A stretch of DNA of 64,000 bases. It comes from Nibribacter ruber (lineage in GTDB: Bacteria > Bacteroidota > Bacteroidia > Cytophagales > Hymenobacteraceae). Below are positions 6,771 to 63,171 of the stretch, in pieces; the first letter of the stretch is position 1; each line of letters begins with the position of its first letter. The notes below the pieces were generated by a model. The model had not been told where the DNA came from. It saw only the letters and a list, made by a program, of their open reading frames with translations, and made no database searches. The stretch covers positions 2,417,001 to 2,481,000 of the forward strand of contig NZ_CP047897.1 of NCBI RefSeq assembly GCF_009913235.1, written 5' to 3'. A program made the translations under genes and the position numbers.

Positions 6771-6808
6771 CGTTTTTGGCCTGTTTTCTGTAAAAGAGGC
6801 TGAAAACG
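6771..6808. repeat. 38-bp dispersed palindrome, copy 1
   Basis: Left arm exact (CGTTTTTGGCCTGTTTT), right arm diverged. It starts 8 bases after the gldD stop. See the finding on the repeat family. Confidence 0.85.
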
Positions 6809-6846
6809 GGTTTGCGTATAGCCTCTAACTCTTCAGTTAGCCTTGC

Positions 6847-6890
6847 TAGCCGCGTTATTACGCGAGTATACTCGCGTAATAACGCGGCTA
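6847..6890. repeat. 44-bp perfect palindrome without spacer
   Basis: TAGCCGCGTTATTACGCGAG followed by TA, then the exact reverse complement: 22-base arms meeting with no loop. It is unrelated to the 38-bp family and not followed by a T-run. It lies between gldD and the cassette-like insert. Confidence 0.9.
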
Positions 6891-7021
6891 TGCGGTTTCC
6901 AGTGAAATCACTATCTATAAGAAAAATCACTATATCGTTAGTACAATGCCAATTAATTAGGGCTCTTTGTCGGCATGGAAGAAAATCTTACCTTTCCTGT
7001 ATACCATGCGCACCACATCAC

Positions 7022-7042
7022 CTCCGCACATAGTACAGATAA
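7022..7042. repeat. Motif shared by the 5' flanks of both cassette-like inserts (copy A)
   Basis: Contains CCGCACATAGTACAGATAA. Its full 21 bases match 40879-40899 at 19 positions. It ends 25 bases before the proposed cassette boundary G|TT at 7067/7068. Read on the minus strand it would encode an ICTxCG zinc-knuckle-like peptide, so it may be either a DNA site or a remnant of coding sequence. Confidence 0.6.
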
Positions 7043-7067
7043 GCGTATGTTTACGTTTATCCGGTAG

Positions 7068-7667
7068 TTATGTACAACTATAAAAAATTGAATGAAAAAA
7101 TTATTGATACTATTTCTCTTCGTTACTCTCCTAAGTTGCCAGCGAACGGATTCCCAAGATACTGCCGATAAAAAACAAGAAACTGTACAAGCTTCTTCAA
7201 TAGACCCTGCAAAAGCGGATTCTGAAAAAACCAGCGACACCTTAACTATCGACGGAAAAAGCGTTGTATTTTTTTCAATCTCGCAAACGGAGTACGACAA
7301 GATAATACAGGAAGAAGGTGAAGATTCTGGAATCAATGAAATTATCAGCGACTTCGAATACTATTCTTCAGAAGTAACCGACACTCTTAATAAAGCAGGA
7401 TTCAAAACAATATTGACGACTAGTAAAACCTTTGCAATCGTAAATAAGCAAGGCGACAAAAGGTTTATCAATAGAGACATCAAAGAAGGGAAAGTAGGTA
7501 TATTACTTTTCGACGGCACGAAAGAACCATTACTTGATTATGGTGTTGGGACGGACATTGATTATCTTTCCATAGTAGACGAATATTTCAAGAAGAAATA
7601 GCTGTACATAACACTGTGTAAAAAATATGCGTCGGCTGACGGCCTAGCACACTTTTTACACTAGCCG
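7068..7667 (+). mobile_element. Integron-cassette-like insert A (one gene plus attC-like site)
   Basis: A 600-base unit bounded by G|TTATGTAC (7067-7075) and G|TTACC (7667/7668). The first bases are the exact reverse complement of GTACATAAC at 7604-7612, the relation expected between a cassette's 5' end and the R'' box of its own attC. The ORF begins 24 bases inside the left boundary and ends just before the attC-like palindrome, as in integron cassettes. It is AT-richer than its neighbours. No integrase is in the window, so mobility is inferred only. Confidence 0.5.
7092..7601 (+). CDS. Orphan lipoprotein in cassette-like insert
   Basis: 169 residues with a lipoprotein signal (MKKLLILFLFVTLLSC), a Ser/Thr/Asp/Lys-rich linker and a folded part (about 50-169) that includes SISQTEYDKIIQEEG and DEYFKKK at the end. 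I do not recognise the family. The coding sequence is AT-rich and Lys-rich compared with the GC-rich neighbours, consistent with recent acquisition. It is likely secreted and membrane-anchored. The start ATG follows an AT-rich leader inside the insert. Confidence 0.75.
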   Translation: MKKLLILFLFVTLLSCQRTDSQDTADKKQETVQASSIDPAKADSEKTSDTLTIDGKSVVFFSISQTEYDKIIQEEGEDSGINEIISDFEYYSSEVTDTLNKAGFKTILTTSKTFAIVNKQGDKRFINRDIKEGKVGILLFDGTKEPLLDYGVGTDIDYLSIVDEYFKKK

Positions 7668-7671
7668 TTAC
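7604..7671 (+). other. attC-like imperfect palindrome A
   Basis: Outer boxes GTACATAAC and CCGTTACC; inner arms GTGTAAAAA (7616-7624) and TTTTTACAC (7653-7661); central hairpin CGTC-GGCT-GACG. The order R''-L''-centre-L'-R' with conserved AAC/GTT ends resembles integron attC sites. It shares AACAYTGTRTAA and TTTAYACKAG-CCGTTA with site B near 41350. Confidence 0.5.
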
Positions 7672-7764
7672 CAAACCTAGAACACCTCATGCATCCAACT
7701 TCCAGGATTCACGGCAATAAGCCAATCCTATGCGCAGTTATCATTATGGCAAAAGCATTCTTAC

Positions 7765-8685
7765 ATGAGACTTTCCAGGCGGTATAGCGCATTCCTTCTT
7801 TTCCTGCTCCCTACTTTCTGCTATGCCGCTGCCCAGGCAGATACCATCCAGATAAAGAACCACCTCACCACCATCACCAAAACCCCCAAGCCCCGAAACT
7901 ATCAGAACGTAGACCAGCTCAACCAAACGGCCAACTACCTGATAAGCGTCTTCAGCCAATACACTCCTAGCGTTTCTGTGCAGGAGTACACGGTAGACGG
8001 GCAGGTGTACAAGAACGTGATTGCCTCCTTCGGGATGGAGCATACCAAACGCATCATAGTCGGCGCGCATTATGACGTCTGCGGAAACCAGGAAGGCGCA
8101 GATGACAATGCCACCGGCGTAGTAGGCTTGCTGGAACTGGCCCGGCTCCTGAAAGGCCAGCAGCTGAACCACCGCATAGACCTGGTGGCCTACACCCTGG
8201 AAGAGCCGCCGTATTTCAGGACGGAGCACATGGGCAGTTATGTACACGCCAAGTCCTTGGCAGAGACTAAGGCAGACGTGTTTGGCATGGTGTCGTTGGA
8301 GATGATCGGGTACTTTAAAGAAGAGAAGAAATCGCAGACCTATCCGGTGGGCATCCTTTCCTGGTTTTATGGCAACAGAGGCAATTACATTACGCTGGTA
8401 AACAAGTTTGGAGCCGGTGCCTTCGCTAAGAGTTTCAGCAGAGAGTTCAAGGCCAGCAACCAGATTAAAACCAAGAAATTCACCGGTCCGCCGGCCCTGC
8501 CCGGTATTGACTTCTCAGACCACCTCAACTACTGGCAGTTTGGCTACAGCGCCCTGATGCTCACAGACACGTCCTTCTACCGGAACAAGAATTACCATGA
8601 GCCCACAGACACGCTGGAAACCCTGGACCTACCCAAAATGGCCTTGGTCTTAGACGGCGTTTACCAGGCCTTGCGCCAACTCTAG
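7765..8685 (+). CDS. Secreted M28-family metallopeptidase
   Basis: 306 residues. The signal peptide is MRLSRRYSAFLLFLLPTFCY, with cleavage likely after the AAAQA region. The M28 zinc ligands are visible in order: H102 in GAHYDV, the bridging Asp in GADDNATG, the Glu pair in TLEEPPY and the last His in NYHEPTDT. M28 enzymes are aminopeptidases or related amidases with two zinc ions; the substrate is unknown. It stands alone, downstream of the cassette-like insert and 32 bases before the GNAT gene. Confidence 0.88.
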   Translation: MRLSRRYSAFLLFLLPTFCYAAAQADTIQIKNHLTTITKTPKPRNYQNVDQLNQTANYLISVFSQYTPSVSVQEYTVDGQVYKNVIASFGMEHTKRIIVGAHYDVCGNQEGADDNATGVVGLLELARLLKGQQLNHRIDLVAYTLEEPPYFRTEHMGSYVHAKSLAETKADVFGMVSLEMIGYFKEEKKSQTYPVGILSWFYGNRGNYITLVNKFGAGAFAKSFSREFKASNQIKTKKFTGPPALPGIDFSDHLNYWQFGYSALMLTDTSFYRNKNYHEPTDTLETLDLPKMALVLDGVYQALRQL

Positions 8686-8717
8686 GCTTGTGTTGAAATC
8701 AATACCCTTCCGTAGTT

Positions 8718-9245
8718 ATGCCTCTTTCAACGTTCACCATCAGACCCGCCCTTCCCTCAGAATTCACGTCCTTGGGCCAGCTCATGGTGCAGGTGTATTC
8801 CCAACTAGACGGCTTCCCGACACCTTCTGAACAACCCGCCTATTACCACCTGCTGGCCAACATAGGCGATTTTACCCAGAAGCCCGGCGTAGAACTGCTG
8901 GTGGCCGTCTCTGAACAAGGAGAATTAGCCGGCGGCGTAGTGTATTTTAGTGACATGCAACACTATGGCTCTGGCGGAACGGCTACCCAAGAGAAAGACG
9001 CGGCGGGTTTCAGGTTTCTGGCCGTAGGTCCAAGTACCAGAGGCAAGGGCCTAGGCAAAGCCTTGACGCTGGCCTGCGTGAAGAAAGCAAAAGATGCCGG
9101 GCGCAGACAACTCATCCTTCACAGCACCAAAGCCATGCAAACGGCGTGGAAAATGTACGAGCAACTGGGCTTTCAAAGGGCGGAAGAGCTTGACTTTATG
9201 CAGGGAGAATTACCGGTCTTCGGGTTTAGGTTGTTTTTGACCTAA
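8718..9245 (+). CDS. GNAT-family N-acetyltransferase
   Basis: 175 residues. The acetyl-CoA binding motif A is visible in FRFLAVGPSTRGKGLGKALT (R/Q-x-x-G-x-G/A pattern), followed by LILHSTKAMQTAWKMYEQLG, the motif-B region typical of GNATs. It transfers an acetyl group from acetyl-CoA to an amine; the acceptor cannot be inferred. The ATG at 8718 gives a normal N-terminus (MPLSTFTIRPALPSE). Confidence 0.88.
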   Translation: MPLSTFTIRPALPSEFTSLGQLMVQVYSQLDGFPTPSEQPAYYHLLANIGDFTQKPGVELLVAVSEQGELAGGVVYFSDMQHYGSGGTATQEKDAAGFRFLAVGPSTRGKGLGKALTLACVKKAKDAGRRQLILHSTKAMQTAWKMYEQLGFQRAEELDFMQGELPVFGFRLFLT

Positions 9246-9301
9246 TTGGCAAGCTGTCCTAAAAATCAGCGCATTGCGTAAATACATCAAGGACCAGCTG
9301 C

Positions 9302-9339
9302 CGTTTTTGGCCTGTTTCCTGAAAAAGAAGCCAAAAACG
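9302..9339. repeat. 38-bp dispersed palindrome, copy 2
   Basis: Left arm nearly exact; right arm reads GAAGCCAAAAACG. It lies between the GNAT and metallophosphatase genes. Confidence 0.85.
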
Positions 9340-9439
9340 AACTGCCTACTTTGCTTCAGGTTAGGTCAACTGCTTTCCTGCTAATCGGGTAATTTTATGG
9401 ATATTGTCTCCTGAATGTACGCCATGCCCCTCCTTTTCT

Positions 9440-10738
9440 ATGCCAACCAGAATGCCAACGCAACCTTCTGCCAACATCTTTAAAACGTTCTTCAAATGGT
9501 CTTTGCTGGCTATAATTGGCTATTGGCCCGTTGCCACCCTGGTGTTTGGGCACAGCAGCATAGATGAGAGCAAAGGCATTTACACCTTCCACTGGTCGGG
9601 GCTGAACGCGCTGGTCAATGACGAAGAGTTTGGATTTGCCAATGGCGAGGAAGTGGCCACCAAGCTGGACGGGGCAGACGGGCCTTACGTCTTCGGGCAA
9701 GAGCAGTTCATTGTCACGGCAGACAACAAGATAATTAAGTCACAGATTGACCCGCGTTTGCCTATTAAGGTAAAAGCTGCCAATGAAGACCAGGACTCTT
9801 TTTACGTCACGTTAAAAACCACGTACCAACCCCAGCAAGACCAGTATGCGCTGCCGGCCAAGCTCATGGCCATCTCAGACATTGAGGGCAATTTTGACGC
9901 CTTCGCCAGCTTTCTCATTAAACACGGGGTCATGGACCGGCACTACAACTGGACGTTTGGCCAGGGGCACCTGGTCCTTAACGGTGACTTTGTGGACCGC
10001 GGCGAGAACGAACCCCAGGTGCTCTGGCTCATTTACCTACTGGAAGACAAGGCGGCGGCGCAGGGCGGCCAGGTGCATTACATTCTGGGCAACCATGAGG
10101 TCATGAAACTCTACGGCGACTATTCCTACACCGAGTACAAATACCGCGAGGTGGCCAAGCAGATCAGTGGCTTTTCTGACTGGGGCACCAGCGCTAAGTT
10201 TTTGTACGGCCCCACCTCTGAGCTGGGCAAATGGCTGAAGACCAAGAACGTGGTCCTCAAGATGGGGCCTTATTTGTTTGTGCACGCCGGCATCAATTCC
10301 AATCTTCTGGCCCACCAGCTTACGGTGTCTGAAATCAACCAGATTGCCCGCAAGTACTACGGGCAGGACGCCAAAGACAAGGTAACCGACCCCAAAGAAA
10401 AGACCGTGTTGAGCAAGTATGACAGCCCGTACTGGGACCGAAGCCTTTCCATGAACCTGGTTTACCGGATTATGTACCTGTTCAGAGACCCACTAGAAGC
10501 CAACTACCACAAAACTACCCAGGCCGAGCTAGAGCAGATTTTAGCTTTTTATGATGTCTCTCAACTGGTGGTGGGACACTCTGTGGTACAAGACATTACA
10601 ACGGATTACCAGGGAAAGGTAGTGAAGATTGACGTGCGGCACGGCCAGGAAAAGAACAGTGACAAGACAGAGGGCATTCTCATTGAGAACAACACCGTCT
10701 ACCGGATTGACGGCCAAGGTCACAAGGAGAAACTCTAA
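9440..10738 (+). CDS. Membrane-anchored metallophosphatase (calcineurin-like)
   Basis: 432 residues from ATG 9440; the open frame extends to a TTG at 9404 but the ATG is preferred. An N-terminal membrane segment (WSLLAIIGYWPVATLVFG) precedes a long insert. The phosphoesterase core follows with SDIEGNFDAF, GDFVDRGE, GNHEVMKL, FVHAGIN and VVGHS, the metal-binding motifs of PPP/Shewanella-like phosphatases. It probably hydrolyses phosphoesters or phosphoproteins at the membrane; whether inside or outside is uncertain. It is a single gene flanked by repeat copies 2 and 3. Confidence 0.88.
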   Translation: MPTRMPTQPSANIFKTFFKWSLLAIIGYWPVATLVFGHSSIDESKGIYTFHWSGLNALVNDEEFGFANGEEVATKLDGADGPYVFGQEQFIVTADNKIIKSQIDPRLPIKVKAANEDQDSFYVTLKTTYQPQQDQYALPAKLMAISDIEGNFDAFASFLIKHGVMDRHYNWTFGQGHLVLNGDFVDRGENEPQVLWLIYLLEDKAAAQGGQVHYILGNHEVMKLYGDYSYTEYKYREVAKQISGFSDWGTSAKFLYGPTSELGKWLKTKNVVLKMGPYLFVHAGINSNLLAHQLTVSEINQIARKYYGQDAKDKVTDPKEKTVLSKYDSPYWDRSLSMNLVYRIMYLFRDPLEANYHKTTQAELEQILAFYDVSQLVVGHSVVQDITTDYQGKVVKIDVRHGQEKNSDKTEGILIENNTVYRIDGQGHKEKL

Positions 10739-10867
10739 CTAGACCCTTTCGCCAGGCAAATCAAATCCTACTCATCATACTCCTGTGACCACTTTTTCTT
10801 GTGACTTCGCCCGGTGGAATCATTCTTGAAGAAACCGGCATTTACCAGCAGAGGATAAGCTCCGCTT

Positions 10868-10905
10868 CGTTTTTGGGCTGTTTCCCAGAAAATAAGCCAA
10901 AAACG
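10868..10905. repeat. 38-bp dispersed palindrome, copy 3
   Basis: Lies in the 233-base gap before the Crp-like regulator. Centre TTTCCCAGAAAA. Confidence 0.85.
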
Positions 10906-10971
10906 CCTTTGCGAAACAACTGCCGCGTCTAACGGTTAGAAGAGGATGACCCCTCACCACTTTCTTGCAGC

Positions 10972-11541: not shown

Positions 11542-11582
11542 AAACGTTGCCTTAGGTCAATGTTTACGGGCGGGGCCTCATG

Positions 11583-12668: not shown

Positions 12669-12706
12669 CGCTTTTAGCTTCTTTTCTGGAAAACAGCCCA
12701 AAAACG
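12669..12706. repeat. 38-bp dispersed palindrome, copy 4
   Basis: Starts CGCTTTTAGC; right arm AAAACAGCCCAAAAACG. It lies within the 533-base gap 12587-13119. That gap also holds a weak hairpin AAGCCCCGG/CCGAGGCTT near 12735-12760 and otherwise no recognisable gene. Confidence 0.8.
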
Positions 12707-13021
12707 GCCCTCATCAGATTGGCAAAAAAGAAAAGCCCCGGCGTAGACCGAGGCTTCCCAATTGCCACTCAATGGCTTAACGCTCGCCCAGCGTGAAGGT
12801 GCTTGCCGTTAACCCGTAACCGCCTAGCACAGATAGTATCTCCTTTCTTTAGTGAGTAGATGTTGATATATACGAACGGTCAAATATTTTGGTATGCGTT
12901 TAAATACTCTTTTTAGCGAGTAAATACCTGTATTTTTTCCACTAAAGAGCAGCGACATTACCAAACGACAGCCATCTTGGCAAACAGGCCAAGCACATTA
13001 GCCCGCCTCATGTCTTTTCTG

Positions 13022-13029
13022 TATTTTTG
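13022..13029 (+). promoter_or_regulatory. Bacteroidetes -7 box (TATTTTTG) for the YjdM gene
   Basis: TATTTTTG, 91 bases before the start codon. Repeat copy 5 would lie in the 5' untranslated leader of this transcript. Confidence 0.45.
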
Positions 13030-13046
13030 CAGGGCGGCCGGGCTGG

Positions 13047-13084
13047 CGTTTTTGGGGTGTTTTCCAGAAAACAGGCTAAAAACG
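13047..13084. repeat. 38-bp dispersed palindrome, copy 5
   Basis: Centre TTTTCCAGAAAA. Located between a probable promoter box and the YjdM start, so probably transcribed as part of a leader RNA. Confidence 0.85.
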
Positions 13085-13461: not shown

Positions 13462-13550
13462 GTTCTTGACCATGGGGCTGCGTTATTCTTCAACGACGGC
13501 GGTAGCCCCGCTCACCACTTTTTAGTAACTTTACAGAACGGCTTGGCTGG

Positions 13551-13588
13551 CGTTTTTGGGCTATTTTCCAGAAAACAGGCTAAAAACG
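13551..13588. repeat. 38-bp dispersed palindrome, copy 6
   Basis: Ends 18 bases before the recG GTG start. Centre TTTTCCAGAAAA, right arm ends GGCTAAAAACG. Confidence 0.85.
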
Positions 13589-17839: not shown

Positions 17840-17898
17840 AAGGTCGTTTTTGGCCTGTTTTATCCAAAACAGGCCAAAAACGACCTTTTAATTCTTTA
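17829..17898. repeat. 38-bp dispersed palindrome, copy 7, inside a 70-base perfect inverted repeat
   Basis: The core 17845-17882 has both arms exact. The symmetry continues outward (TAAAGAATTAAAAGGT on the left, its complement on the right), giving 33-base perfect arms around the loop ATCC. The left arm includes the last codons and TAA of the preceding gene. Confidence 0.95.
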
Positions 17899-18584: not shown

Positions 18585-18696
18585 ATTAGTAGTTGGCGCT
18601 CAGCTCATAGAACCTTCTCAGCGGACCTTATTCCAATGCTTCTAAATACATTCTTTAGGTGCATCTTAGAATTTATCACTTAGACGAACCCCTGCT

Positions 18697-18738
18697 AAAA
18701 ACGGTAAGCCCCACCAATTGGCGGGGCTTACCGTTTTT
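18697..18738. terminator. Bidirectional terminator fused to palindrome copy 8
   Basis: 16-base arms AAAAACGGTAAGCCCC and its complement around ACCAATTGGC. A-run on the left, T-run on the right, between convergent genes. The final CGTTTTT is also the first seven bases of repeat copy 8. Confidence 0.85.
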
Positions 18739-18769
18739 AAGCTACTTTGACCAAAACAGGTCAAAAACG
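18732..18769. repeat. 38-bp dispersed palindrome, copy 8
   Basis: Left arm degenerate (CGTTTTTAAGCTACTTT), right arm AAAACAGGTCAAAAACG. It overlaps the preceding terminator by 7 bases. Confidence 0.8.
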
Positions 18770-21042: not shown

Positions 21043-21046
21043 GAGC

Positions 21047-22320: not shown

Positions 22321-22358
22321 CGTTTTTGGCTTATTTTCTGGAAAACAGGCCAAAAACG
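22321..22358. repeat. 38-bp dispersed palindrome, copy 9
   Basis: Right arm exact; left arm CGTTTTTGGCTTATTTT. It lies between two same-strand fad genes, so it is probably transcribed within the operon. Confidence 0.9.
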
Positions 22359-24842: not shown

Positions 24843-24880
24843 CGTTTTTAGCCTCTTTTCTGGAAATCAGGCCAAAAACG
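24843..24880. repeat. 38-bp dispersed palindrome, copy 10
   Basis: Left arm CGTTTTTAGCCTCTTTT, right arm AAATCAGGCCAAAAACG. It lies between the MarR gene and the fadB-type gene. Confidence 0.85.
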
Positions 24881-25424: not shown

Positions 25425-25462
25425 CGTTTTCTACCTCTTTTACGGAAACTAAGCCAAAAACG
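25425..25462. repeat. 38-bp dispersed palindrome, copy 11
   Basis: Degenerate left half (CGTTTTCTACCTCTTTT), right end AAGCCAAAAACG conserved. Confidence 0.75.
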
Positions 25463-28851: not shown

Positions 28852-28889
28852 TGTTTTTGGCCTATTTCCTAGAAAACAGACCAAAAACG
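28852..28889. repeat. 38-bp dispersed palindrome, copy 12
   Basis: First base T instead of C; right arm AAAACAGACCAAAAACG. Confidence 0.85.
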
Positions 28890-30901: not shown

Positions 30902-30939
30902 CGTTTTTGGCGTATTTCCCAGAAAAGAAGCTAAAAACG
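30902..30939. repeat. 38-bp dispersed palindrome, copy 13
   Basis: Starts 6 bases after the murQ stop and is directly followed by a terminator. Confidence 0.85.
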
Positions 30940-33764: not shown

Positions 33765-33802
33765 CGTTTTTAGCCTCCTTTAGCAGAATCTAGCCAAAAA
33801 CG
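33765..33802. repeat. 38-bp dispersed palindrome, copy 14
   Basis: Degenerate centre (CCTTTAGCAGAATCT); outer arms CGTTTTTAGCC and GCCAAAAACG kept. Between era and der. Confidence 0.75.
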
Positions 33803-34995: not shown

Positions 34996-35033
34996 TGTTT
35001 TTGGTCACTTTTCTGGAAAACAAGCCAAAAACG
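34996..35033. repeat. 38-bp dispersed palindrome, copy 15
   Basis: First base T; centre CTTTTCTGGAAAAC. Located in the 412-base divergent gap between era and hemH, which otherwise holds only the two promoter boxes. Confidence 0.85.
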
Positions 35034-37483: not shown

Positions 37484-37521
37484 CGTTTTTGGCTTGTTTT
37501 CCAGCAAACAGGCCAAAAACG
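37484..37521. repeat. 38-bp dispersed palindrome, copy 16
   Basis: Left arm CGTTTTTGGCTTGTTTT, right arm CAAACAGGCCAAAAACG. Between two minus-strand genes. Confidence 0.88.
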
Positions 37522-38311: not shown

Positions 38312-38349
38312 CGTTTTTGGGCTCTTTTCCAGAAAACAGGCCAAAAACG
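38312..38349. repeat. 38-bp dispersed palindrome, copy 17
   Basis: Right arm exact; left arm CGTTTTTGGGCTCTTTT. It lies between divergent genes; the antiporter reading frame runs open through it. Confidence 0.88.
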
Positions 38350-41435: not shown

Positions 41436-41473
41436 CGTTTTTAGCCTGTTTCCCAGAAAATAGCCCAAAAACG
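41436..41473. repeat. 38-bp dispersed palindrome, copy 18
   Basis: Left arm CGTTTTTAGCCTGTTTC, right arm GAAAATAGCCCAAAAACG, directly followed by a terminator. Confidence 0.85.
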
Positions 41474-41508
41474 AAAAGCGGAAGCTGTTGTCACAACTTC
41501 CGCTTTTC
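41473..41508. terminator. Terminator downstream of proS
   Basis: Stem GAAAAGCGGAAG / CTTCCGCTTTTC around CTGTTGTCACAA, 50 bases beyond the proS stop; shares its first base with repeat copy 18. Confidence 0.78.
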
Positions 41509-45868: not shown

Positions 45869-45906
45869 CGTTTTTGGGCTGTTTCCTGGAAAACAGGCCA
45901 AAAACG
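45869..45906. repeat. 38-bp dispersed palindrome, copy 19
   Basis: Right arm exact, left arm CGTTTTTGGGCTGTTTC. Starts 4 bases after the FadL-like stop. Confidence 0.9.
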
Positions 45907-45908: not shown

Positions 45909-45958
45909 ATAAAAGAGAAGGCCTCTCCTGAATCATCAGGGGAGGCCTTCTCTTTTAT
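45909..45958. terminator. Bidirectional terminator between the FadL-like gene and lpdA
   Basis: 23-base arms (ATAAAAGAGAAGGCCTCTCC and complement, one mismatch) around ATCA, between convergent genes. Confidence 0.87.
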
Positions 45959-47449: not shown

Positions 47450-47487
47450 TGTTTTTGGCTTCTTTTCGTGAAAACAAGCCAAAAACG
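47450..47487. repeat. 38-bp dispersed palindrome, copy 20
   Basis: First base T; centre TTTTCGTGAAAA. Next to MITE-like element 2. Confidence 0.85.
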
Positions 47488-47680: not shown

Positions 47681-49327
47681 TTAAACACCTAAAAGCAGTC
47701 TCATTGGGTCTTCCAGCAATTCTTTCACGCGCACCAAGAAGCTTACCGACTCACGACCGTCAATAATGCGGTGGTCATACGATAGCGCCAGGTACATCAT
47801 TGGTCTGATTTCCACTTGGTTGTTGATGGCTACCGGACGGTTCACGATGTTGTGCATACCCAGGATAGCTGACTGCGGTGCGTTGATGATAGGCGTTGAC
47901 ATCATAGACCCGAACACACCCCCGTTGGTGATAGTGAAGGTACCGCCGGTCATCTCGTCAATACCCAGTTTGTTCTCGCGGGCACGCTTGGCCAGACGCA
48001 CTACCTCTTTCTCAATACCGTCCAGGCTCAGGCCTTCGGCGTTGCGGATAACCGGAACCACCAGACCTTTAGGCGCAGACACGGCAATAGAAATATCGCA
48101 GAAGTCGTTGAAGATCATTTCACCACCATCAATCTGGGCGTTTACCGCTGGCCATTCTTTAAGAGCTACGGTACAGGCTTTGATGAAGAAGGACATGAAG
48201 CCTAAACCTACCTCGTGCTTTTCTTTAAACGTCTCTTTGTACTTGGCTCTGATGTCCATGATTGGTTTCATGTCTACCTCATTGAAAGTAGTCAACATGG
48301 CCGTCTCATTTTTCACAGACACCAATCTGCGGGCCACCGTCTTGCGCAACGAGGTCATTTTCTCACGGCGTGAGTTTCTTGAACCCGCCACCGCTGGAGC
48401 TGATGCTTGAGAAGTAGCCGGGGCAGAAGCTGCGGCTGGTTGAGCGGCAGGAGCTGCCGGACGAGTCTGTGCGTTCTGCGCGTCTTCCTTGGTGATGCGT
48501 CCGTCACGGCCAGAACCGCTTACATCAGAAGCGGAGATGCCTTTCTCAGAAAGGATTTTACCCGCCGCTGGTGATGGAGTTCCGCTGGCGTAGGTAGATG
48601 CACCGCCTGCTAGAGCAGAAGCCGCTTGCGCTGGCTGTGCCGCTGGAGCACTTGCCTTAGGAGCCGAAGCGCCTGAACCAGCACCCACCTCAATACGGCA
48701 TATGGTAGCGCCAATTTCTACGGTTTCGCCTTCCTGGGCTACAATACGCAATACGCCGGCGGCCTCAGCGGGTAACTCAAACGTGGCTTTGTCAGATTCT
48801 AGCTCGCATAGCACTTCGTCCATGTTCACTTGGTCACCGTCGGCTTTTACCCATTTGGCAATGGTTACTTCGGTGATAGATTCGCCTACGGTCGGGATTT
48901 TGATATCAATGGTTTGACCGGTCCCGGTACTCGCCTGCCCTGCGCTTCCGCCTTCTGTAGGTTGGTTCTGGGCATCGCGGCTAGGAACCTGCTCGGCTAC
49001 CGGAGTGCTTTGCGGGTCAGAAACGGTTTTAGTTTCTACCATGCCTTCTTGCGTAGTGGCAGCGGCTGGTTTTGGAGCCGAAGCGCCAGCGCCTGAACCT
49101 TCAATCACGCAGATAACCGCGCCTACTGGAATAGTGTCTCCTTCTTGCGCTTGAATACGAAGTACACCAGCGGCTTCAGCGGGCAGTTCAAAGGTGGCCT
49201 TGTCAGATTCCAGCTCACAGATGATTTCATCCATGGCCACTTGGTCACCGTCATGCTTCAACCATTTGGCAACGGTTACTTCGGTGATGGATTCGCCGAC
49301 TACCGGCACTTTCACTTCTAATGACAT
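47681..49327 (-). CDS. sucB: 2-oxoglutarate dehydrogenase E2 (dihydrolipoyl succinyltransferase), two lipoyl domains
   Basis: 548 residues. Two near-identical lipoyl domains (about 1-76 and 145-220), each with [13 protein letters not shown], where the Lys carries lipoate. A peripheral-subunit-binding domain (about 253-290, [19 protein letters not shown]) and the catalytic domain with [12 protein letters not shown] (HxxxDG) follow. Ala/Pro linkers separate them. Most E2o proteins carry one lipoyl domain, so the doubling is notable, though known in Bacteroidetes. Downstream of E1. Confidence 0.95.
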
Positions 49328-49360: not shown

Positions 49361-49398
49361 CGTTTTTGGGCTATTTCCTGAAAAGTAGCACAAAAACG
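49361..49398. repeat. 38-bp dispersed palindrome, copy 21
   Basis: Right arm degenerate (AAAGTAGCACAAAAACG). Between the E1 stop and E2 start, so within the probable operon. Confidence 0.82.
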
Positions 49399-54062: not shown

Positions 54063-54100
54063 CGTTTTTGGCTTCTTTTTCAGAAAATAGCCTAAAAACG
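54063..54100. repeat. 38-bp dispersed palindrome, copy 22
   Basis: Left arm CGTTTTTGGCTTCTTTT, right arm GAAAATAGCCTAAAAACG. In the divergent gap between the kinase-like gene and the next plus-strand gene. Confidence 0.85.
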
Positions 54101-54839: not shown

Positions 54840-54854
54840 GCGTAGGCTTCTCAC

Positions 54855-54902
54855 AAAAACAGAAGGCCCCGTTTGCTTGAGCAAACGGGGCCTTCTGTTT
54901 TT
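54855..54902 (+). terminator. Intrinsic terminator fused to palindrome copy 23
   Basis: Long stem AAAACAGAAGGCCCCGTTTG and its complement around CTTGAG; the closing TGTTTTT is also the start of repeat copy 23. Confidence 0.87.
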
Positions 54903-54933
54903 GGCCTTTTTCCTAGAAAATAGGCCAAAAACG
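54896..54933. repeat. 38-bp dispersed palindrome, copy 23
   Basis: First base T; right arm AAAATAGGCCAAAAACG. Overlaps the preceding terminator by 7 bases. Confidence 0.85.
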
Positions 54934-56313: not shown

Positions 56314-56351
56314 CGTTTTTGCCAGATTTTCCAGAAAACAGCCTAAAAACG
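56314..56351. repeat. 38-bp dispersed palindrome, copy 24
   Basis: Left arm CGTTTTTGCCAGATTTT, right arm AAAACAGCCTAAAAACG. 34 bases before the start of the large fusion gene. Confidence 0.83.
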
Positions 56352-59300: not shown

Positions 59301-59952
59301 GGTGAATGTTGAGCGCACGCCAGAGCGTTTCCTTTCTACGCTGACCACCTCAGACAAACGGTACACAGACTACAATGACCCTAAAGCCTATGCGGGCGCC
59401 CGACTGGAATATGAACTGGACTCTAGAGACGTGGCAGCCCTGCCGGCCAAAGGCATGCACTGGGTCATTGGCGCAGACCTCATGAAAGGAACCAAGGCCA
59501 CGTCTCAGGACTTCGGGCGCATTAACTCAGAGCTGTCTTTGTACCAGACCGTGCGCATTCCTTTCAAGCTGACCTTGGCCACGCGTTTTGGCGGCGGGCA
59601 TACCTTCGGGGATGATTTTGAGTTCTTCCAGGGCCAGCACTTGGACGGCTTGAACACTTTGCGTGGCTATAGAAGAACCAGGTTCACCGGTCAGACGTCT
59701 TTTTACAACAACACAGAGGCCCGTTTGCGGTTGTTCACCTTTACCACGTACCTGTTCCCGGCCACGGTGGGCGTGTTCGGGTTCCATGACGTGGGCCGCG
59801 TGTGGGTAGACGGCGAGAACTCCAAAGATTGGCACACGGGATATGGCGGTGGCGTTTGGTTTGCCCCGGTCAACCAAGTAGTCATCTCCCTGGGCTACAC
59901 CGTCTCAGAGGAAGACAAACTACCTTTAATCAAAGCCGGCTTCTTCTTTTAA
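56386..59952 (+). CDS. Phosphoesterase-like / kinase-like / outer-membrane barrel fusion
   Basis: 1188 residues. Signal sequence (MRIHLPRWVVRLSIVTCTLL, cut near RGWAQ). Residues about 40-330 resemble a calcineurin-like phosphoesterase, but key metal motifs look altered (FIGNPFQPA where GD is usual; PGEHDAKG instead of GNHD). Residues about 370-800 carry GGLKVVQRGGGFQTVSLRLE, Lys427 in LRSVEKYP, DWDRH (555-559) and IPRDRDQAF (D583, D585). The C-terminal 370 residues form a surface-antigen/BamA-like beta-barrel ending GFFF. Outer-membrane location inferred. Related to the gene at 52388. Confidence 0.82.
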   Translation: MRIHLPRWVVRLSIVTCTLLPVRGWAQTPSLPSSEVTHTVLLAGRWAPNQTSAAPLPLLQTQLQQAGKKSTLVFIGNPFQPATLPGVAAPDRPVLEEKLRAQLQYLQGFEGKVVVMPGEHDAKGKVVQEVRNQERYLSQVLGNDKLILPENACPGPTELAVTDDVHLLLLDTQWLMPNRRMDDKEEMRGCETVGGTATMAAVDDVLRSNEEKNLLVIMSVSPEMKGLEYKLMHRQLAQMYTEHAGLIHAEGNSPALQHRTKDSIHYVSTGLGASNMKPVKDTHPAYASNTPGFAKILYLANGETWLEIWTASDVNSAQGQVAYRAKLSQKPTTKQLQEKIQNMNLSFTGKTATLPASQVYKASKFREWLLGTNYRPEWSTPVTLPLFDIGAQKGGLKVVQRGGGFQTVSLRLEDSTGRQYVLRSVEKYPDAALPAVFRKTIAADVVKDQISASHPYGSLVVTPLADAAGVYHTNPQYFAIPNDPRFGRYLKGFANTIGLFEERPDEDMSDVASMGNAKNVVGTDKVLENTREDQNDQVDQMSLLRARLFDFFIADWDRHDDQWRWAEFKKDGKGKVYKAIPRDRDQAFFVNQGVIPNIASRKWILPKVQGFDESLRDIEGFNFNNRNFDRSFLTGLERADWIAMADSVKASFTDEAIDNAVRQLPDNIYKISGQRLASTLKARRAYIRRDAEDYYEFLAKQVDVAGTDEAEFFEVQRQQDGTTVVSVFKKDSATTAYSPKDRIYQRRFLPAETDEVRLYGLGGNDHFVVKGQGQEGIRVRIIGGNGQDQVIDSSNVEGLRRLTYIYDQPDGITIQAGTEARNLTRHRPTPTYDRLSYKYDYLGPLASFQFNRDDGFLLGGGVLLEKQGFQKQPFAMRHRLVGSYAFATRSFLVDYAGHFTRVRLGLDLKLNVNFKSPGFSDNFFGFSNESEYNPDIDIEYYRYRSSQLYVNALAGRKLGEHATFFAGPAYQAVNVERTPERFLSTLTTSDKRYTDYNDPKAYAGARLEYELDSRDVAALPAKGMHWVIGADLMKGTKATSQDFGRINSELSLYQTVRIPFKLTLATRFGGGHTFGDDFEFFQGQHLDGLNTLRGYRRTRFTGQTSFYNNTEARLRLFTFTTYLFPATVGVFGFHDVGRVWVDGENSKDWHTGYGGGVWFAPVNQVVISLGYTVSEEDKLPLIKAGFFF

Positions 59953-59964
59953 GCCGCTACTCCA

Positions 59965-60012
59965 TAAAAAAAACGGAAGGGGCTGACCAATGTGGTCAGC
60001 CCCTTCCGTTTT
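59965..60012 (+). terminator. Intrinsic terminator fused to palindrome copy 25
   Basis: Stem AAACGGAAGGGGCTGACCA and its complement, loop ATG-like; A-run before, T-run after. CGTTTTT at the end is shared with repeat copy 25. Confidence 0.88.
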
Positions 60013-60044
60013 TGGGGTATTTCCTGGAAAACAGGCTAAAAACG
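60007..60044. repeat. 38-bp dispersed palindrome, copy 25
   Basis: Left arm CGTTTTTGGGGTATTTC, right arm AAAACAGGCTAAAAACG. Ends 2 bases before the stop of the next minus-strand gene. Confidence 0.87.
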
Positions 60045-60045
60045 C

Positions 60046-60306
60046 CTAGTTCAGGAACACAGAGAACAACTCAAAGCGGTTAGAGGAGAAGCTCCAGTGT
60101 GAGGGGCTAGGGTGAATCTCATCGCCAGACTCATCAATGATGGTCACGGCCATGCCCTCTTCCTGGTTTAAAGGCTCTGTAAAATGCTTAACGGTGTAAA
60201 TATGCCCTTCCTCAATCCATTCCTCTGGATCAAAGGCGGGCGGTGTAGCATCTATGCATTTCGCATAAACGGCCATATAGCTGGGTGGATAGATCAAATT
60301 TACCAT
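60046..60306 (-). CDS. Small hypothetical protein (86 aa)
   Basis: 86 residues, acidic: YPPSYMAVYAKCIDATPPAF and EEWIEEGHIYTVKHF, ending ELFSVFLN. Soluble, no signal. No family recognised. The 254-base region upstream (60307-60560) holds no other feature. Confidence 0.68.
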   Translation of the reverse strand: MVNLIYPPSYMAVYAKCIDATPPAFDPEEWIEEGHIYTVKHFTEPLNQEEGMAVTIIDESGDEIHPSPSHWSFSSNRFELFSVFLN

Positions 60307-60560
60307 GACGTATAAACGGTGAACAGGTGTAAAAAATTCCGGCAGGTCACTCGCCCCCTACTCTTTCTCTTGCAAAATCCTCGCCAAGTTTAGGGGCTGC
60401 CTTTTGGTTATAACAAGTCTATAATACGAACTGTTTTCCAACTTCCAAAACGCGGCGGTACAAATTATCTTATTCCGGGGCACCCTCTTTTTTTCAGGAA
60501 CGTACATTTAAATCTGGCTTAGCCAGTTACGTGTACAATACTCACCTTATCCATAAAACG

Positions 60561-60821
60561 ATGGCACAAGAAGAGAACAAAGCCCAGAACCTGAATCTGG
60601 ACGATAAACTGCCCAGAGGCAACTCCTCACAGCAGGACATGAAGCAGAACAAAAACGAGGAGCCCGGCGCGGGCGCCAAAGACAACGCCAGCGCCCAGCA
60701 GGGCGGTCAGCAACCGGGCAACAGCCAGGGCGGCCAAGGCGGAAAGTCAACCGACGGCGACGCCAACTCCCGCCATGACACCCATGATGAGCAAAGTGTA
60801 TTTGGCCGGCTAGACAGCTGA
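60561..60821 (+). CDS. Gln/Gly/Asn-rich disordered protein (86 aa)
   Basis: 86 residues from ATG 60561; ten more codons are open upstream. Low complexity and charged: QEENKAQNLNLDDKLPRGNS and QQGGQQPGNSQGGQGGKSTD, no hydrophobic core. Resembles small hydrophilic stress-type proteins, but no function is claimed. The MBL gene follows after 23 bases and may be co-transcribed. Confidence 0.68.
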   Translation: MAQEENKAQNLNLDDKLPRGNSSQQDMKQNKNEEPGAGAKDNASAQQGGQQPGNSQGGQGGKSTDGDANSRHDTHDEQSVFGRLDS

Positions 60822-60844
60822 TTTCTCACCTAAACCAGACGTCT

Positions 60845-61945
60845 ATGCAAGATCAGATTCAGCAAGTACTACAGCAGAAACAGCAGTCTACCTTTCCGGT
60901 GGCCCCAGGCATCATGGGCATGGAGATTGTCTTTGTGAACCTCTATTTTGTGGAGAACCCAGACGGCTCCTGGGTGTTGGTAGACGCAGGCTTGTACGCC
61001 TCGGCAGACCGCATCAGAAAAGCCGCCGAAGAAAAGTTTGGCAAGTCCAACCCGCCCAAGGCCATTTTGCTCACGCACGGGCACTTTGACCACGTGGGCG
61101 CCCTGCAGACCTTGGCAGACTATTGGAACGTGCCGGTGTTCACGCACCCGCTAGAGCTGCCGTATTTGACCGGTTTGTCCAGCTACCCTCCGCCAGACTC
61201 CAGCGTGGGCGGCGGCGGCATGGCCTATATGTCGTTCATGTATCCCAAGAAACCCATTACGTTCCATGGCAGGCTGGAGACGCTTCCGCCGGATGGTTCC
61301 GTGCCGTTTGCCCCAGAATGGAAATGGCTGGAAACGCCGGGCCACTCACCAGGACACGTTTCTTTCTTCAGGGAGCGGGACCGCGTGCTATTGGTAGGCG
61401 ATGCCTTTGTGACCCGTAAACCAGAGTCTGCCATGGCGGTGCTCACCCAGAAGAAAGAAGTCTGTGGACCGCCAGCGTATTTTACGCCAGACTGGGATGC
61501 CGCCCGCGCCTCTGTACAGAAATTAGCCGGCTTGCGCCCTTTGGTGGCGGCCAGCGGACACGGTTTGCCCATGCAAGGCGAGCAGCTAGAACGGGAATTG
61601 TCTGACCTGGCGCGTTTGTTTGACCAACTGGCCGTTCCTAGCCAAGGGCGCTACGTGGGCAACCCCGCCATCACAGATGAGCGGGGCGTGGTAGAACTGC
61701 CGCCAACGGTTAAGAACACCGTGCCCAAAGTGCTGGCCACCGCGGGGCTGGTTGCCTTGGCCGGCATGGCCGCGTATTCTTTGGCCAAGAACCGCCGCAA
61801 CGGGCGGGTGTCCAGGCAGCGGAAACGCTGGCCGGCCCAACCACATTTCCAGCACCAACCTGGCACCAATGCAACGGTAGGCCATCTGTACCATCCCTCT
61901 GCCAGTTACCTGGACATGCCAGACGCCACCAACAACTATCCGTAA
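60845..61945 (+). CDS. Metallo-beta-lactamase-fold hydrolase with C-terminal tail
   Basis: 366 residues. Zinc-binding THGHFDHVGAL (HxHxDH), then GHSPGHVSF and LLVGDAFVTR with the third and fourth ligand regions; a later His is in ASGHGLP. The hydrolase ends near residue 270. A membrane-like segment follows (VLATAGLVALAGMAAYSLA), then a basic tail, so the enzyme may be tail-anchored, which is unusual for this family. Substrate unknown. Confidence 0.85.
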   Translation: MQDQIQQVLQQKQQSTFPVAPGIMGMEIVFVNLYFVENPDGSWVLVDAGLYASADRIRKAAEEKFGKSNPPKAILLTHGHFDHVGALQTLADYWNVPVFTHPLELPYLTGLSSYPPPDSSVGGGGMAYMSFMYPKKPITFHGRLETLPPDGSVPFAPEWKWLETPGHSPGHVSFFRERDRVLLVGDAFVTRKPESAMAVLTQKKEVCGPPAYFTPDWDAARASVQKLAGLRPLVAASGHGLPMQGEQLERELSDLARLFDQLAVPSQGRYVGNPAITDERGVVELPPTVKNTVPKVLATAGLVALAGMAAYSLAKNRRNGRVSRQRKRWPAQPHFQHQPGTNATVGHLYHPSASYLDMPDATNNYP

Positions 61946-61963
61946 TCATGTTGAGAAGCATAT

Positions 61964-62005
61964 AAAAAGAAGAAGGCGAACCAGATGGTTCGCCTTCTTC
62001 TTTTT
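61964..62005. terminator. Bidirectional terminator fused to degenerate palindrome copy 26
   Basis: Stem AAAAAGAAGAAGGCGAACCA and complement around GA, with T-run leading into CGTTTTT of the repeat. Between convergent genes. Confidence 0.86.
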
Positions 62006-62041
62006 CGTTTTTGGGCAGTTTTCCCCAGATCAGGGCAAAAC
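62006..62041. repeat. 38-bp dispersed palindrome, copy 26 (degenerate)
   Basis: CGTTTTTGGGCAGTTTTCCC kept, but the right end reads CAGGGCAAAAC and then the stop codon of the next minus-strand gene; truncated copy. Confidence 0.65.
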
Positions 62042-62781
62042 TAGTACAAGCCTAGGGCTTTCCTTTTAAGAGCCGTGAACTCGTCATGGTTGATGGTGCC
62101 TTCATCCAGCATGCGCTTGAGGCGCTCAATGGTGGCAATGTCACCGTCAATGGCGCTGTTGCCCGCCATGCCCGCTGAAGAAGGAGAACCCATGTTTGAC
62201 GAAGAGCCCACATTTGAATGCCTATCATGGTTCATGTCTGCATTGGTTGAGGAGCTTCTCTGGTCTAGGTAGTCATCTTGGTGGCGGCGTGTCTGGTAGA
62301 AACGGCTGTCGTCAAAAGACTCATGCTCATAGAAGTCATCATCTGGCGGCGTAGTGTGCGAAGACGTAGTCATGAACGAGGTGGTAGGACTGGTCACCGC
62401 GTGCAGCACGCGGTATTCATAGTCTGGCGTCACCTCGCCGCCCCGGTAAAAAGGATAGCGTGACAAGCCGGCCAGTTCCAGGCCGGTTACCCGCACCTCA
62501 TCGGCAGACTCGTCTAGGTGGGCCGCGCCAATGGGCACCAGGATATGGCGGTCATCAGTGTCAGGCAGCAGCAGGTTGGGGTCTACGTCTACGTCCAGGT
62601 AGCGCACTTTCATGAGGGTCTGGTCCACGATGAGGTCGTCTACTTTGCCAATGCGGCGTCCGTCTGACCCAATCACCTCCCAGCCGCGCACGTCCAGGTT
62701 GTTGTCTGCTACTTTAAAGTTGCTCAGTTTATGCAAAGGGCGCAGGCGCACTCCCTTTGAGTAGTCATTATTCGTTGCCAT
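62041..62781 (-). CDS. PRC-barrel and SHOCT domain protein
   Basis: 246 residues. The N-terminal PRC-barrel (about 15-105) has WEVIGSDGRRIGKVDDLIVD and KVRYLDVDVDP; the middle is acidic and disordered; the C-terminus IERLKRMLDEGTINHDEFTA is a SHOCT helix pair. PRC-barrels occur in RNA-processing and photosynthetic-complex proteins and in stress-type proteins; the role here is unknown. The small membrane protein gene lies upstream on the same strand. Confidence 0.87.
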   Translation of the reverse strand: MATNNDYSKGVRLRPLHKLSNFKVADNNLDVRGWEVIGSDGRRIGKVDDLIVDQTLMKVRYLDVDVDPNLLLPDTDDRHILVPIGAAHLDESADEVRVTGLELAGLSRYPFYRGGEVTPDYEYRVLHAVTSPTTSFMTTSSHTTPPDDDFYEHESFDDSRFYQTRRHQDDYLDQRSSSTNADMNHDRHSNVGSSSNMGSPSSAGMAGNSAIDGDIATIERLKRMLDEGTINHDEFTALKRKALGLY

Positions 62782-62807
62782 GTCTCTTTCTTTTCTAGGT
62801 GAGAAGA

Positions 62808-62996
62808 TTAAACACTGCCATTGTAGTAAGGTGACAGAGGCAGCACGAAAGAGGTGGGCGCGCCGTTGTACTCAGCGGTGTTGTTCTCTTCGTTGAGGTA
62901 TTTGTAGAGCGCGTAGCCAATGATTGCCAACACCAGCAGAATGATCAGCCACATCCAGCCAGAGCGCTTTTTCCGTTCAACATTAATTTCAGCCAT
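62808..62996 (-). CDS. Small single-pass membrane protein (62 aa)
   Basis: 62 residues. A basic N-terminus (MAEINVERKKRSGWM) is followed by one membrane segment (WLIILLVLAIIGYALYKYL) and a short polar tail. Upstream of the PRC-barrel gene with 26 bases between, so probably the same operon. Confidence 0.75.
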   Translation of the reverse strand: MAEINVERKKRSGWMWLIILLVLAIIGYALYKYLNEENNTAEYNGAPTSFVLPLSPYYNGSV

Positions 62997-63133
62997 AGTT
63001 TTATTAGTTTAGGTTAGAAAGGCCACAAGGCCACTCCCTTGAGTACGCAGGTCTGGTAGAGAGGTTTGTTCTCAAGAACTTACTGCGGCGCTTTCCTAAA
63101 CCAGATGGCTTTGCGCCTAAAAAGAAATGCGGT

Positions 63134-63171
63134 CGTTTTTGGCCTGTTTCTGAGAAAACAAGCCAAAAACG
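63134..63171. repeat. 38-bp dispersed palindrome, copy 27
   Basis: Left arm nearly exact, right arm GAAAACAAGCCAAAAACG; symmetry extends outward by GCGGT / ACCGC. Confidence 0.88.

What the first reader, a model, noticed from the sequence alone, without database searches (positions are those of the whole stretch)
6771..63171. A 38-bp imperfect palindrome present 27 times, only between genes
The unit is CGTTTTTGGCCTGTTTT, a 4-base centre, then AAAACAGGCCAAAAACG. Copies lie about every 2.4 kb from 6771 to 63171, in divergent, convergent and same-strand gaps, and none inside a gene body (copies 7 and 26 touch stop codons). The outer CGTTTTT/AAAAACG and the centre are best kept; the middle of one arm varies, and reverse-complementing copies 2 and 27 makes them resemble the others, so the element seems to have an orientation. 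The polarity (U-rich first, A-rich last) is the opposite of an intrinsic terminator. It could be a REP/MITE-like family moved by an unlinked enzyme, a nucleoid or regulator site, or an RNA hairpin affecting mRNA ends. If the density holds, a 5-Mb genome would carry around 2000 copies.
Basis: seen in the sequence. Interest (0 to 1): 0.82.

Follow-up and report, generated by a model that had tools for sequence, protein, structure and literature searches.

The report
Rufibacter gene-end DNA palindromes with dialects
A Rufibacter bacterium carries roughly 1,500 copies of a 38-letter DNA palindrome between its genes, mostly just behind gene ends; its relatives keep matching palindromes in many of the same places but spell them in their own dialect, which suggests an unknown DNA-reading factor rather than a jumping element or an RNA hairpin.

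Summary
All 27 copies are real; the genome (a Rufibacter, 4.35 Mb) carries about 1,540 (95% 1,370-1,730), and 4 of 292 sampled sites lie inside confidently called genes. Sites favour gene 3' ends, usually one per gap. All 16 Rufibacter genomes searched have the family; other genera almost none. Relatives hold palindromes of the same 17+4+17 geometry at many of the same gap positions, several with a species-specific spelling ("dialect"). In two sister species 116 sites pair by position, 85% identical, flanks about 50%. Against the obvious readings: mismatches show no G-T over A-C excess on the mRNA strand (289 v 293), so not RNA hairpins; no target-site duplications, 149 distinct sequences in 150 copies and one site in an 89-kb apparent island speak against present movement (one candidate gain seen); RAYT transposase genes have fewer sites beside them than other genes. 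Best reading: two-fold symmetric DNA sites kept by selection for an unidentified, co-evolving sequence-specific factor, probably acting at transcription-unit ends. The factor and the function are inferred; how the sites first spread is open. Closest known kinds are REP/BIME palindromes and DNA-uptake-sequence dialects; each fails a tested defining feature.

The parts
6771..6808 (+). 38-bp palindromic site 1
   Evidence: profile scan; matching site in sister G007
9302..9339 (+). 38-bp palindromic site 2
10868..10905 (-). 38-bp palindromic site 3
12669..12706 (+). 38-bp palindromic site 4
13047..13084 (-). 38-bp palindromic site 5, inside an 86-nt segment repeated at 13503-13588
13551..13588 (-). 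38-bp palindromic site 6 (same repeated segment)
17845..17882 (+). 38-bp palindromic site 7; the palindrome extends at least 15 bp further into unique flanks on both sides; G007 keeps only a half-site remnant
18732..18769 (-). 38-bp palindromic site 8, shares the T-run of a terminator
22321..22358 (+). 38-bp palindromic site 9; site in the same gap in 8 of 13 genomes
24843..24880 (+). 38-bp palindromic site 10; site in the same gap in 12 of 15 genomes
25425..25462 (-). 38-bp palindromic site 11; site in the same gap in 10 of 15 genomes
28852..28889 (-). 38-bp palindromic site 12; site in the same gap in 7 of 15 genomes
30902..30939 (-). 38-bp palindromic site 13; site in the same gap in 10 of 15 genomes, 5-8 bp behind the stop codon in 9 of them
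33765..33802 (-). 38-bp palindromic site 14; at offset 18 in 14 of 16 genomes
34996..35033 (+). 38-bp palindromic site 15
37484..37521 (-). 38-bp palindromic site 16
38312..38349 (-). 38-bp palindromic site 17
41436..41473 (-). 38-bp palindromic site 18, abuts terminator-like hairpin 41473-41508
45869..45906 (+). 38-bp palindromic site 19, beside terminator 45909-45958; same arrangement in G005 and G006, a similar pair in G004
47450..47487 (-). 38-bp palindromic site 20
49361..49398 (+). 38-bp palindromic site 21, between sucA and the next gene; site in the same gap in 12 of 16 genomes, with compensatory changes
54063..54100 (-). 38-bp palindromic site 22; intact in 5 of 16 genomes, degraded look-alikes at the same place in several others
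54896..54933 (+). 38-bp palindromic site 23, shares the T-run of terminator 54854-54903
56314..56351 (-). 38-bp palindromic site 24 in a divergent gap; site in the same gap in 9 of 12 genomes
60007..60044 (+). 38-bp palindromic site 25, shares the T-run of terminator 59969-60013
62006..62043 (-). weakest copy (site 26), overlaps the stop codon of 62041-62781; follows terminator 61964-62005
63134..63171 (-). 38-bp palindromic site 27
18696..18739 (.). ordinary bidirectional intrinsic terminator beside site 8
41473..41508 (.). terminator-like hairpin beside site 18
45909..45958 (.). ordinary bidirectional intrinsic terminator beside site 19
54854..54903 (.). ordinary bidirectional intrinsic terminator beside site 23
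59969..60013 (.). ordinary bidirectional intrinsic terminator beside site 25
61964..62005 (.). ordinary bidirectional intrinsic terminator beside site 26

Best explanation
Each copy is a two-fold symmetric double-stranded DNA recognition site: two inverted half-sites (C)GTTTTTGGCCTGTTT(T) around a CYRG centre. An unidentified sequence-specific DNA-binding factor reads it, probably as a dimer. The sites are old: many were already at their present gap positions in the Rufibacter ancestor. Selection on the DNA sequence keeps them, and in several lineages the whole set drifted together into a dialect as the factor's preference changed. Their place behind stop codons, between convergent genes and beside intrinsic terminators suggests that the bound factor acts at transcription-unit ends, as a two-way roadblock or insulator against read-through, or as a supercoiling or nucleoid anchor. 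Shown: copy number, location bias, positional conservation, dialects, position-specific constraint, a DNA-level rather than RNA-level signal, little sign of present mobility. Inferred: ancestral presence, the protein, its dimeric binding, and the function.
For: Positions T4-T6 and T15-T16 of the half-site are at or near 100% in 300 half-sites, position 13 about 50% (sites above a score cut). The two arms are unlinked (no cross-arm pair outside the centre above z=2.9) and 150 copies give 149 distinct sequences. Lone half-sites: 1, against 265 in palindromes. Sister species: of 126 orthologous gaps with a site in either, 114 have one in both; 116 positional pairs, 85% identity, flanks 47-59% ungapped, T4-T6 99-100% (pairs needed a profile hit in both, which favours the core); a gapped count conditioned on G000 only gave 87% v 72% for 30-bp flanks. 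Same offset across the genus, e.g. 14 of 16 genomes. Dialects: within-species identity .83 and .83 against ortholog .72 for G000-G005. Rare letters match orthologs at .246 v .131 (G000).248 v .119 (G007) and .362 v .102 (G005), so these dialects arose in place. 3'-end bias: nearer the upstream stop in 125 of 171 same-strand cases, P=1.2e-9; convergent > same > divergent occupancy. Gaps with two or more sites: 20 v 32.8 simulated. Sense-strand G-T v A-C mismatches 289 v 293.
Against: No cognate protein was found; HU-type proteins are not genus-specific. A specificity change would break about 1,500 sites at once, which is hard to picture for an ordinary regulator. Within a half-site some positions are linked (10-13 z=6.5, 8-10 z=4.5, 11-14 z=4.3). 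In G001, G006, G008 and G010 pair 7 covaries (96 of 163 v 42.6 expected), and pairs 6 and 8-10 less so; at one locus 10 of 17 pairs show two-sided changes; a plain half-site model does not predict this. G013 shows no retention of ortholog letters (.152 v .204), which fits wholesale replacement. 27 of 509 sites extend 6 or more bp into unique flanks as perfect palindromes (1.9 expected), unexplained by protein binding. About half of divergent gaps of 260-800 bp hold sites (24 of 50). Detected terminators favour sites only modestly in same-strand gaps (22 of 35 with v 62 of 142 without) and not in convergent ones (20 of 29 v 12 of 17). Overall spacing is less even than simulated (CV 1.78 v 1.37), largely through the site-poor island. 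One candidate recent gain exists (G000 2,571,148).
Confidence: 0.5

Rival explanations
1. REP/MITE-like mobile palindromes: the copies are non-autonomous elements spread by a RAYT/TnpA-REP or another transposase and are now mostly fixed.
For: The family is in all 16 Rufibacter genomes and virtually absent from other genera, so it must have spread on the stem lineage. Intergenic 3'-end placement is REP-like. RAYTs are in 15 of 16 genomes. A 38-mer or a look-alike lies just upstream of the gene in five loci of one RAYT clade and in a sixth, more distant one (by eye; scores 22-35), and in G000 copies flank that RAYT on both sides. A consensus-perfect extra copy in G000 (2,571,148) lies in a segment missing from G007 that also holds a RAYT-type short palindrome. 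G001 shows sub-types whose arms match.
Against: RAYT loci have fewer sites than ordinary genes of the same genomes: 6 of 45 upstream v 13.7 expected, 9 of 45 downstream v 25.1. Several RAYTs are flanked by their own shorter palindromes; one such type occurs 8 times in 464 kb of G000 and not at all in 480 kb of G007, which has no RAYT but as many 38-mers (170 v 171). No target-site duplications. One site in an 89-kb apparent island v about 32 expected. 149 distinct sequences in 150 copies and unlinked arms. No GTAG/GGAG foot in the consensus.
Confidence: 0.22
2. DNA-uptake-like self-recognition: the sites mark own DNA for natural transformation and are kept by biased uptake and recombination, which would also explain dialects and decay in some species.
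For: Species dialects on conserved positions, scarcity in an apparently acquired island, few pattern matches in G009 and G015 (37 and 39). Neisserial DUS have species dialects and inverted pairs linked to terminators (passages of PMC3630211).
Against: Uptake sequences are short and common inside genes (recalled), whereas 4 of 292 sites here lie in confidently called genes. A lone half-site almost never occurs. One-per-gap placement is not a feature of DUS that I know. Competence was not tested.
Confidence: 0.12
3. Mutational product: replication template switching between the arms keeps making and perfecting palindromes without selection on a site.
For: Perfect palindromic extension into unique flanks in 27 of 509 sites, 1.9 expected. 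Arm covariation in four species and at one locus. Template switching homogenises inverted-repeat arms (abstract of PMC8604942).
Against: It cannot explain the shared motif, its fixed T positions, the gap-end placement or the genus limit. In the sister pair there is little excess of two-sided changes (70 v 57.3) and no excess of inverted centres (.118 v .139). It can only be a helper.
Confidence: 0.09
4. RNA hairpins at mRNA 3' ends (stability or termination).
For: Location behind stop codons, pairing potential, covariation at one intra-operon locus.
Against: Sense-strand G-T v A-C mismatches 289 v 293 over 16 genomes and 92 v 93 in G000. Orientation unrelated to gene strand. Copies also in 35 of 97 divergent gaps. 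Opposite polarity to terminators, which are present separately. In G000 pairs 10 and 13 do not covary.
Confidence: 0.05

Closest known systems
REP/BIME palindromes with RAYT (TnpA-REP), including TnpAY1 subclass 2.6 of Bacteroidetes with 'atypical' palindromes (PMC6006769; passages, and sections 12, 13 and 25 read)
   Same: Short palindrome, over 1,000 mostly intergenic copies, placed behind genes, species-specific variants, RAYT genes in 15 of 16 of the genomes.
   Different: No GT[AG]G foot, much more symmetric, positions conserved across a genus, no enrichment beside RAYT genes, little sign of current movement.
GTAG- and CGTC-tagged palindromic repeats (PMC3733652, passages read)
   Same: Dispersed small palindromes; CGTC types occur in Bacteroidetes and seem to lack a dedicated transposase.
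   Different: Those carry an unpaired tetranucleotide tag and a short unpaired tail and often form dimers; here CGTTT pairs with AAACG and copies are usually single.
DNA uptake sequence dialects of Neisseriaceae (PMC3630211, passages read)
   Same: Motif with thousands of copies and species dialects on a shared core; inverted pairs suggestive of terminators.
   Different: 38-bp obligate palindrome, rarely in genes, no known competence link.
Intrinsic terminators
   Same: Palindrome behind genes, between convergent genes.
   Different: T-rich first and A-rich last; true terminators sit beside some copies; no RNA-strand signature.

Membership tests
REP/RAYT system | GT[AG]G tetranucleotide at the foot of the hairpin | tested here: not met
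   Consensus CGTTTTTGGCCTGTTTTCYRG... has none
REP/RAYT system | cognate RAYT gene flanked by the repeat | tested here: not met
   45 RAYT loci: 6 upstream v 13.7 expected, 9 downstream v 25.1 (two loci read on the wrong strand there score 0 on both sides when corrected, so the counts stand). One clade and a further locus do have copies or look-alikes upstream
REP/RAYT system | over 100 intergenic copies per genome | tested here: met
   about 1,540 copies, 4 of 292 in confidently called genes
MITE | target-site duplications | tested here: not met
   4 bp or more: 3 observed v 3.7 in flank shuffles, 509 sites
MITE | near-identical recent copies / empty sites | tested here: inconclusive
   149 distinct sequences in 150 copies. 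39 sites of the sister pair lack a positional partner; 1 of these 39 has a gap-length difference of 30-60 bp, and there the shorter sister keeps a half-site remnant, so a loss. One consensus-perfect copy looks like a gain in a larger segment. 5 of the gaps were printed as alignments
Intrinsic terminator | GC stem followed by T-run on the transcript | tested here: not met
   polarity reversed; no strand signature
DNA uptake sequence | species dialects on a shared core | tested here: met
DNA uptake sequence | common inside coding sequence | tested here: not met
   4 of 292
DNA uptake sequence | raises uptake or transformation | not testable with these tools
   needs a transformation assay
HU/IHF-type nucleoid protein sites | genus-specific HU-family protein | tested here: not met
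   one strong HU match (E below 1e-17) in most of the 35 genomes inside and outside the genus, two in G041; a strong HU-HIG match only in G013

The most novel reading that the evidence does not exclude
A genus-wide chromosomal code: about 1,500 two-fold symmetric DNA sites marking transcription-unit boundaries, read by an undiscovered factor whose specificity has shifted repeatedly, so that the sites of a species moved together to a new dialect while staying in place. That would be a new kind of chromosome-wide boundary element in bacteria, with site-reader co-evolution visible at thousands of loci.
Probability: 0.33. Interest if true: 0.85.

Novelty: new variant of a known kind. Interest (0 to 1): 0.63.

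Why it matters
Dispersed bacterial palindromes are usually explained as mobile REP elements or RNA hairpins. This set fits neither well: it keeps its positions across a genus, is constrained as DNA, changes spelling in concert in several species, and is almost missing from an apparently acquired island. It gives a natural experiment, with 16 genomes and hundreds of matched sites, for asking how a genome-wide set of binding sites and its reader evolve together, and whether bacteria use DNA-level boundary elements at transcription ends.

Tried and rejected
RNA hairpin: rejected by the wobble test. RAYT-moved REP: I first leaned to this because G000's best RAYT lies between two copies; the genus-wide comparison went the other way. 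Classical transposition: no target-site duplications. Autonomous parent element with half-site ends: one lone half-site in 464 kb. HU/IHF paralogue as reader: not genus-specific. Spacer inversion by template switching: not seen in the sister pair. Rfam: no match in the window. Plasmid collection: no match to the 38-mer. Scan of named genomes for the exact dialect: nothing; records near the window's genome may be left out there. A rooted tree failed because the other genera covered too few of the genes and were dropped by my 40% rule. In one search my open-reading-frame parser read only 25 of 49 RAYT loci, so neighbourhoods were recounted by match coordinates; two of its 45 loci were taken on the wrong strand by my heuristic, and one search showed that this changes no count. 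Weak points: the gene caller is my own; site thresholds (profile score, or motif plus pairing) were set by me; 'strong' and 'weak' species are named after the fact; one search repeats the covariation test without pairing in the selection; the looser pattern's reversed control matched once in one of 296 genomes.
Full report
1. The observation. The window lies in a single-contig 4.35-Mb genome. In 824 kb of it I count 292 sites, i.e. 1,542 per genome (95% 1,370-1,730); 4 of 292 fall inside confidently called genes although 74% of the sequence is coding (own gene caller; with a laxer threshold 9 of 166).

2. Where they sit. Occupancy is highest between convergent genes (17 of 36 gaps of 45-120 bp, 15 of 19 of 120-260 bp, 19 of 22 of 260-800 bp), lower in same-strand gaps (17 of 84, 62 of 116, 53 of 90) and lowest in divergent gaps (0 of 3, 6 of 31, 24 of 50). 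In same-strand gaps 125 of 171 sites are nearer the upstream stop than the downstream start; 76 lie within 40 bp of the stop, 20 within 40 bp of the start. Gaps with two or more sites are fewer than simulated (20 v 32.8), but overall spacing is less even than simulated (CV 1.78 v 1.37). Six of the window's 27 sites touch or share the T-run of a terminator-like hairpin. Over the sample the association with detected terminators is modest in same-strand gaps (22 of 35 with, 62 of 142 without) and absent in convergent ones (20 of 29, 12 of 17).

3. Who has them. A pattern for the G000 dialect matches 16 of 59 genomes, exactly the 16 of the genus, some with one to three hits. A looser pattern that keeps GTTT..CT..TTT and its mirror matches all 16 (37 to 1,245 sites), 5 of 184 genomes of other genera of the family (1-2 sites each), and none of 295 other genomes drawn from the phylum (the reversed control matched in one genome, none). 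The genus is Rufibacter: the G003 contig carrying sucA has the length and match position of Rufibacter latericius NZ_RJJD01000015.1. Around sucA, nine genomes of other genera (seven of the family) show ordinary terminators and no such family, apart from two isolated palindromes of this polarity.

4. Dialects at fixed positions. Relatives carry palindromes of the same 17+4+17 geometry, several with their own consensus. They sit in the same gaps, often at the same offset: 14 of 16 genomes in one gap, 12 of 16 between sucA and the next gene, 12 of 15, 10 of 15 and 9 of 12 in others; 16 of the 44 surveyed gaps have none in any species. Degraded look-alikes lie at the same place in some species. 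Pooled identity is .756 for orthologous sites (626 comparisons).758 within species and .716 between unmatched sites. Between G000 and G005 matched sites are no more alike (.72) than unmatched ones (.72), while within each species they are .83; in weaker species the order is reversed (e.g. G003-G012, five gaps.85 v .71 and .66). The dialect did not come by simple overwriting in G000, G007 and G005: letters that are rare in the species match the orthologous site at .246.248 and .362 against .131.119 and .102 expected (500 permutations never reached this); G013 is an exception (.152 v .204).

5. Constraint. Between the sisters G000 and G007 (median protein identity 90%), 114 of 126 orthologous gaps with a site in either species have one in both, and 116 sites pair by position while 39 do not. 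Paired sites are 85% identical, their flanks 47-59% by ungapped comparison; T4-T6 and T15-T16 are 98-100% kept, positions 8 and 13 only 69% (both sites had to pass the profile, which favours the core). A gapped comparison over the 16 window gaps with a site, conditioned on G000 only, gave 87% for sites, 72% for 30-bp flanks and 78% for other gap sequence.

6. DNA or RNA. In same-strand gaps, mismatched pairs that would be G-U in the mRNA are as frequent as those that would be A-C: 92 v 93 in G000 and 289 v 293 over 16 genomes. Site orientation is unrelated to gene strand (47 v 48). This argues strongly against selection on an RNA hairpin. In G000 pairs 10 and 13 do not covary, the arms are unlinked although some positions within a half-site are linked, and 150 copies give 149 distinct sequences: the profile of a binding site read by a two-fold symmetric protein.

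7. What does not fit neatly. In G001, G006, G008 and G010 pair 7 covaries strongly (96 of 163 v 42.6) and pairs 6 and 8-10 less so, and at the sucA locus 10 of 17 pairs show changes on both sides across ten species (covariation score .461 v .183 shuffled; ten of the twelve intact sites were given). 27 of 509 sites continue as perfect palindromes 6 bp or more into unique flanks (1.9 expected), seven of them by 10 bp or more, while target-site duplications are absent. Arm-templated repair during replication could add to this, but the sister pair shows little of it (two-sided changes 70 v 57.3; inverted centres .118 v .139).

8. Mobility. An 89-kb stretch (genome 2,628-2,717 kb) with patchy G+C, RND efflux genes, a serine recombinase beside a tRNA-Met gene, and weak (below cut-off) STAND-NTPase and SMC matches among ten proteins examined, looks acquired and holds one site where about 32 are expected: sites do not readily enter new DNA. 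RAYT genes, the known movers of REPs, are in 15 of 16 genomes but not found in G007. Those seen carry motifs like those given for TnpAY1 subclass 2.6 (NHxH, WQ, YIHxNP; PMC6006769), which that paper says is flanked by atypical palindromes. Here several RAYTs are flanked by other, shorter palindromes; one such type occurs 8 times in 464 kb of G000 and never in 480 kb of RAYT-less G007, where the 38-mers are as many (170 v 171). 45 RAYT loci have fewer 38-mers nearby than ordinary genes (6 v 13.7 upstream, 9 v 25.1 downstream). Against this stand a 38-mer or look-alike just upstream in five loci of one RAYT clade and one further locus, and one candidate gain: a consensus-perfect copy at G000 2,571,148, in a segment absent from G007 that also holds a RAYT-type short palindrome.

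9. Reading. I take the copies to be old, mostly fixed, DNA-level recognition sites for an unidentified sequence-specific factor, acting at transcription-unit ends (confidence 0.5). How they spread in the Rufibacter ancestor is unknown; a REP-like episode is possible. The parallel with DNA-uptake-sequence dialects (PMC3630211, passages) is instructive, but the sites avoid genes. HU-family proteins are not genus-specific. A search for Rufibacter plus palindrom gave two papers whose listings do not concern this, and three related searches listed none on it; the library holds open-licence papers only and I saw listings, not full texts.

Noticed in passing
G000 2,628-2,717 kb (L162-L166): An 89-kb apparent island with RND efflux genes, a serine recombinase next to tRNA-Met and weak STAND-NTPase and SMC matches, nearly free of the palindromes.
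   Followed up: partly
L053, L077-L080 (RAYT loci): RAYT genes with their own short palindromes GAGTCTNNAGACTC; another set (L090, L101, L110, L113-L115) with CTTCCGGATT...AATCCGGAAG and/or GTTCGGGATT...AATCCCGAAC; L121 with GGTCTGTC...GACAGACC.
   Followed up: partly
window 33765-33802 and its orthologs: This copy is nearly unchanged and off-consensus (CTCC...GAATC) in most species, 18 bp from a called start codon; G000 and G007 moved toward their dialect. It may have an extra role.
   Followed up: partly
window 6847-6890: A perfect 44-bp palindrome with 20-bp arms of unrelated sequence right behind site 1.
   Followed up: no
window 48690-49312: A 212-nt direct repeat (75%) inside the gene after sucA, perhaps a duplicated domain.
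   Followed up: no
G000 sample tiles: On the plus strand G-T mismatches exceed A-C in tiles with positive GC skew (92 v 63) and not in negative ones (33 v 42); probably strand-biased mutation.
   Followed up: no
window 12999-13084 and 13503-13588: An 86-nt segment repeated at 81% identity that carries a palindrome in each copy: a local duplication multiplied the site.
   Followed up: no
G007:C1:1085589-1088372: The sucA match in the sister species is reported with one internal TAA although the open frame is 933 aa; not examined.
   Followed up: no
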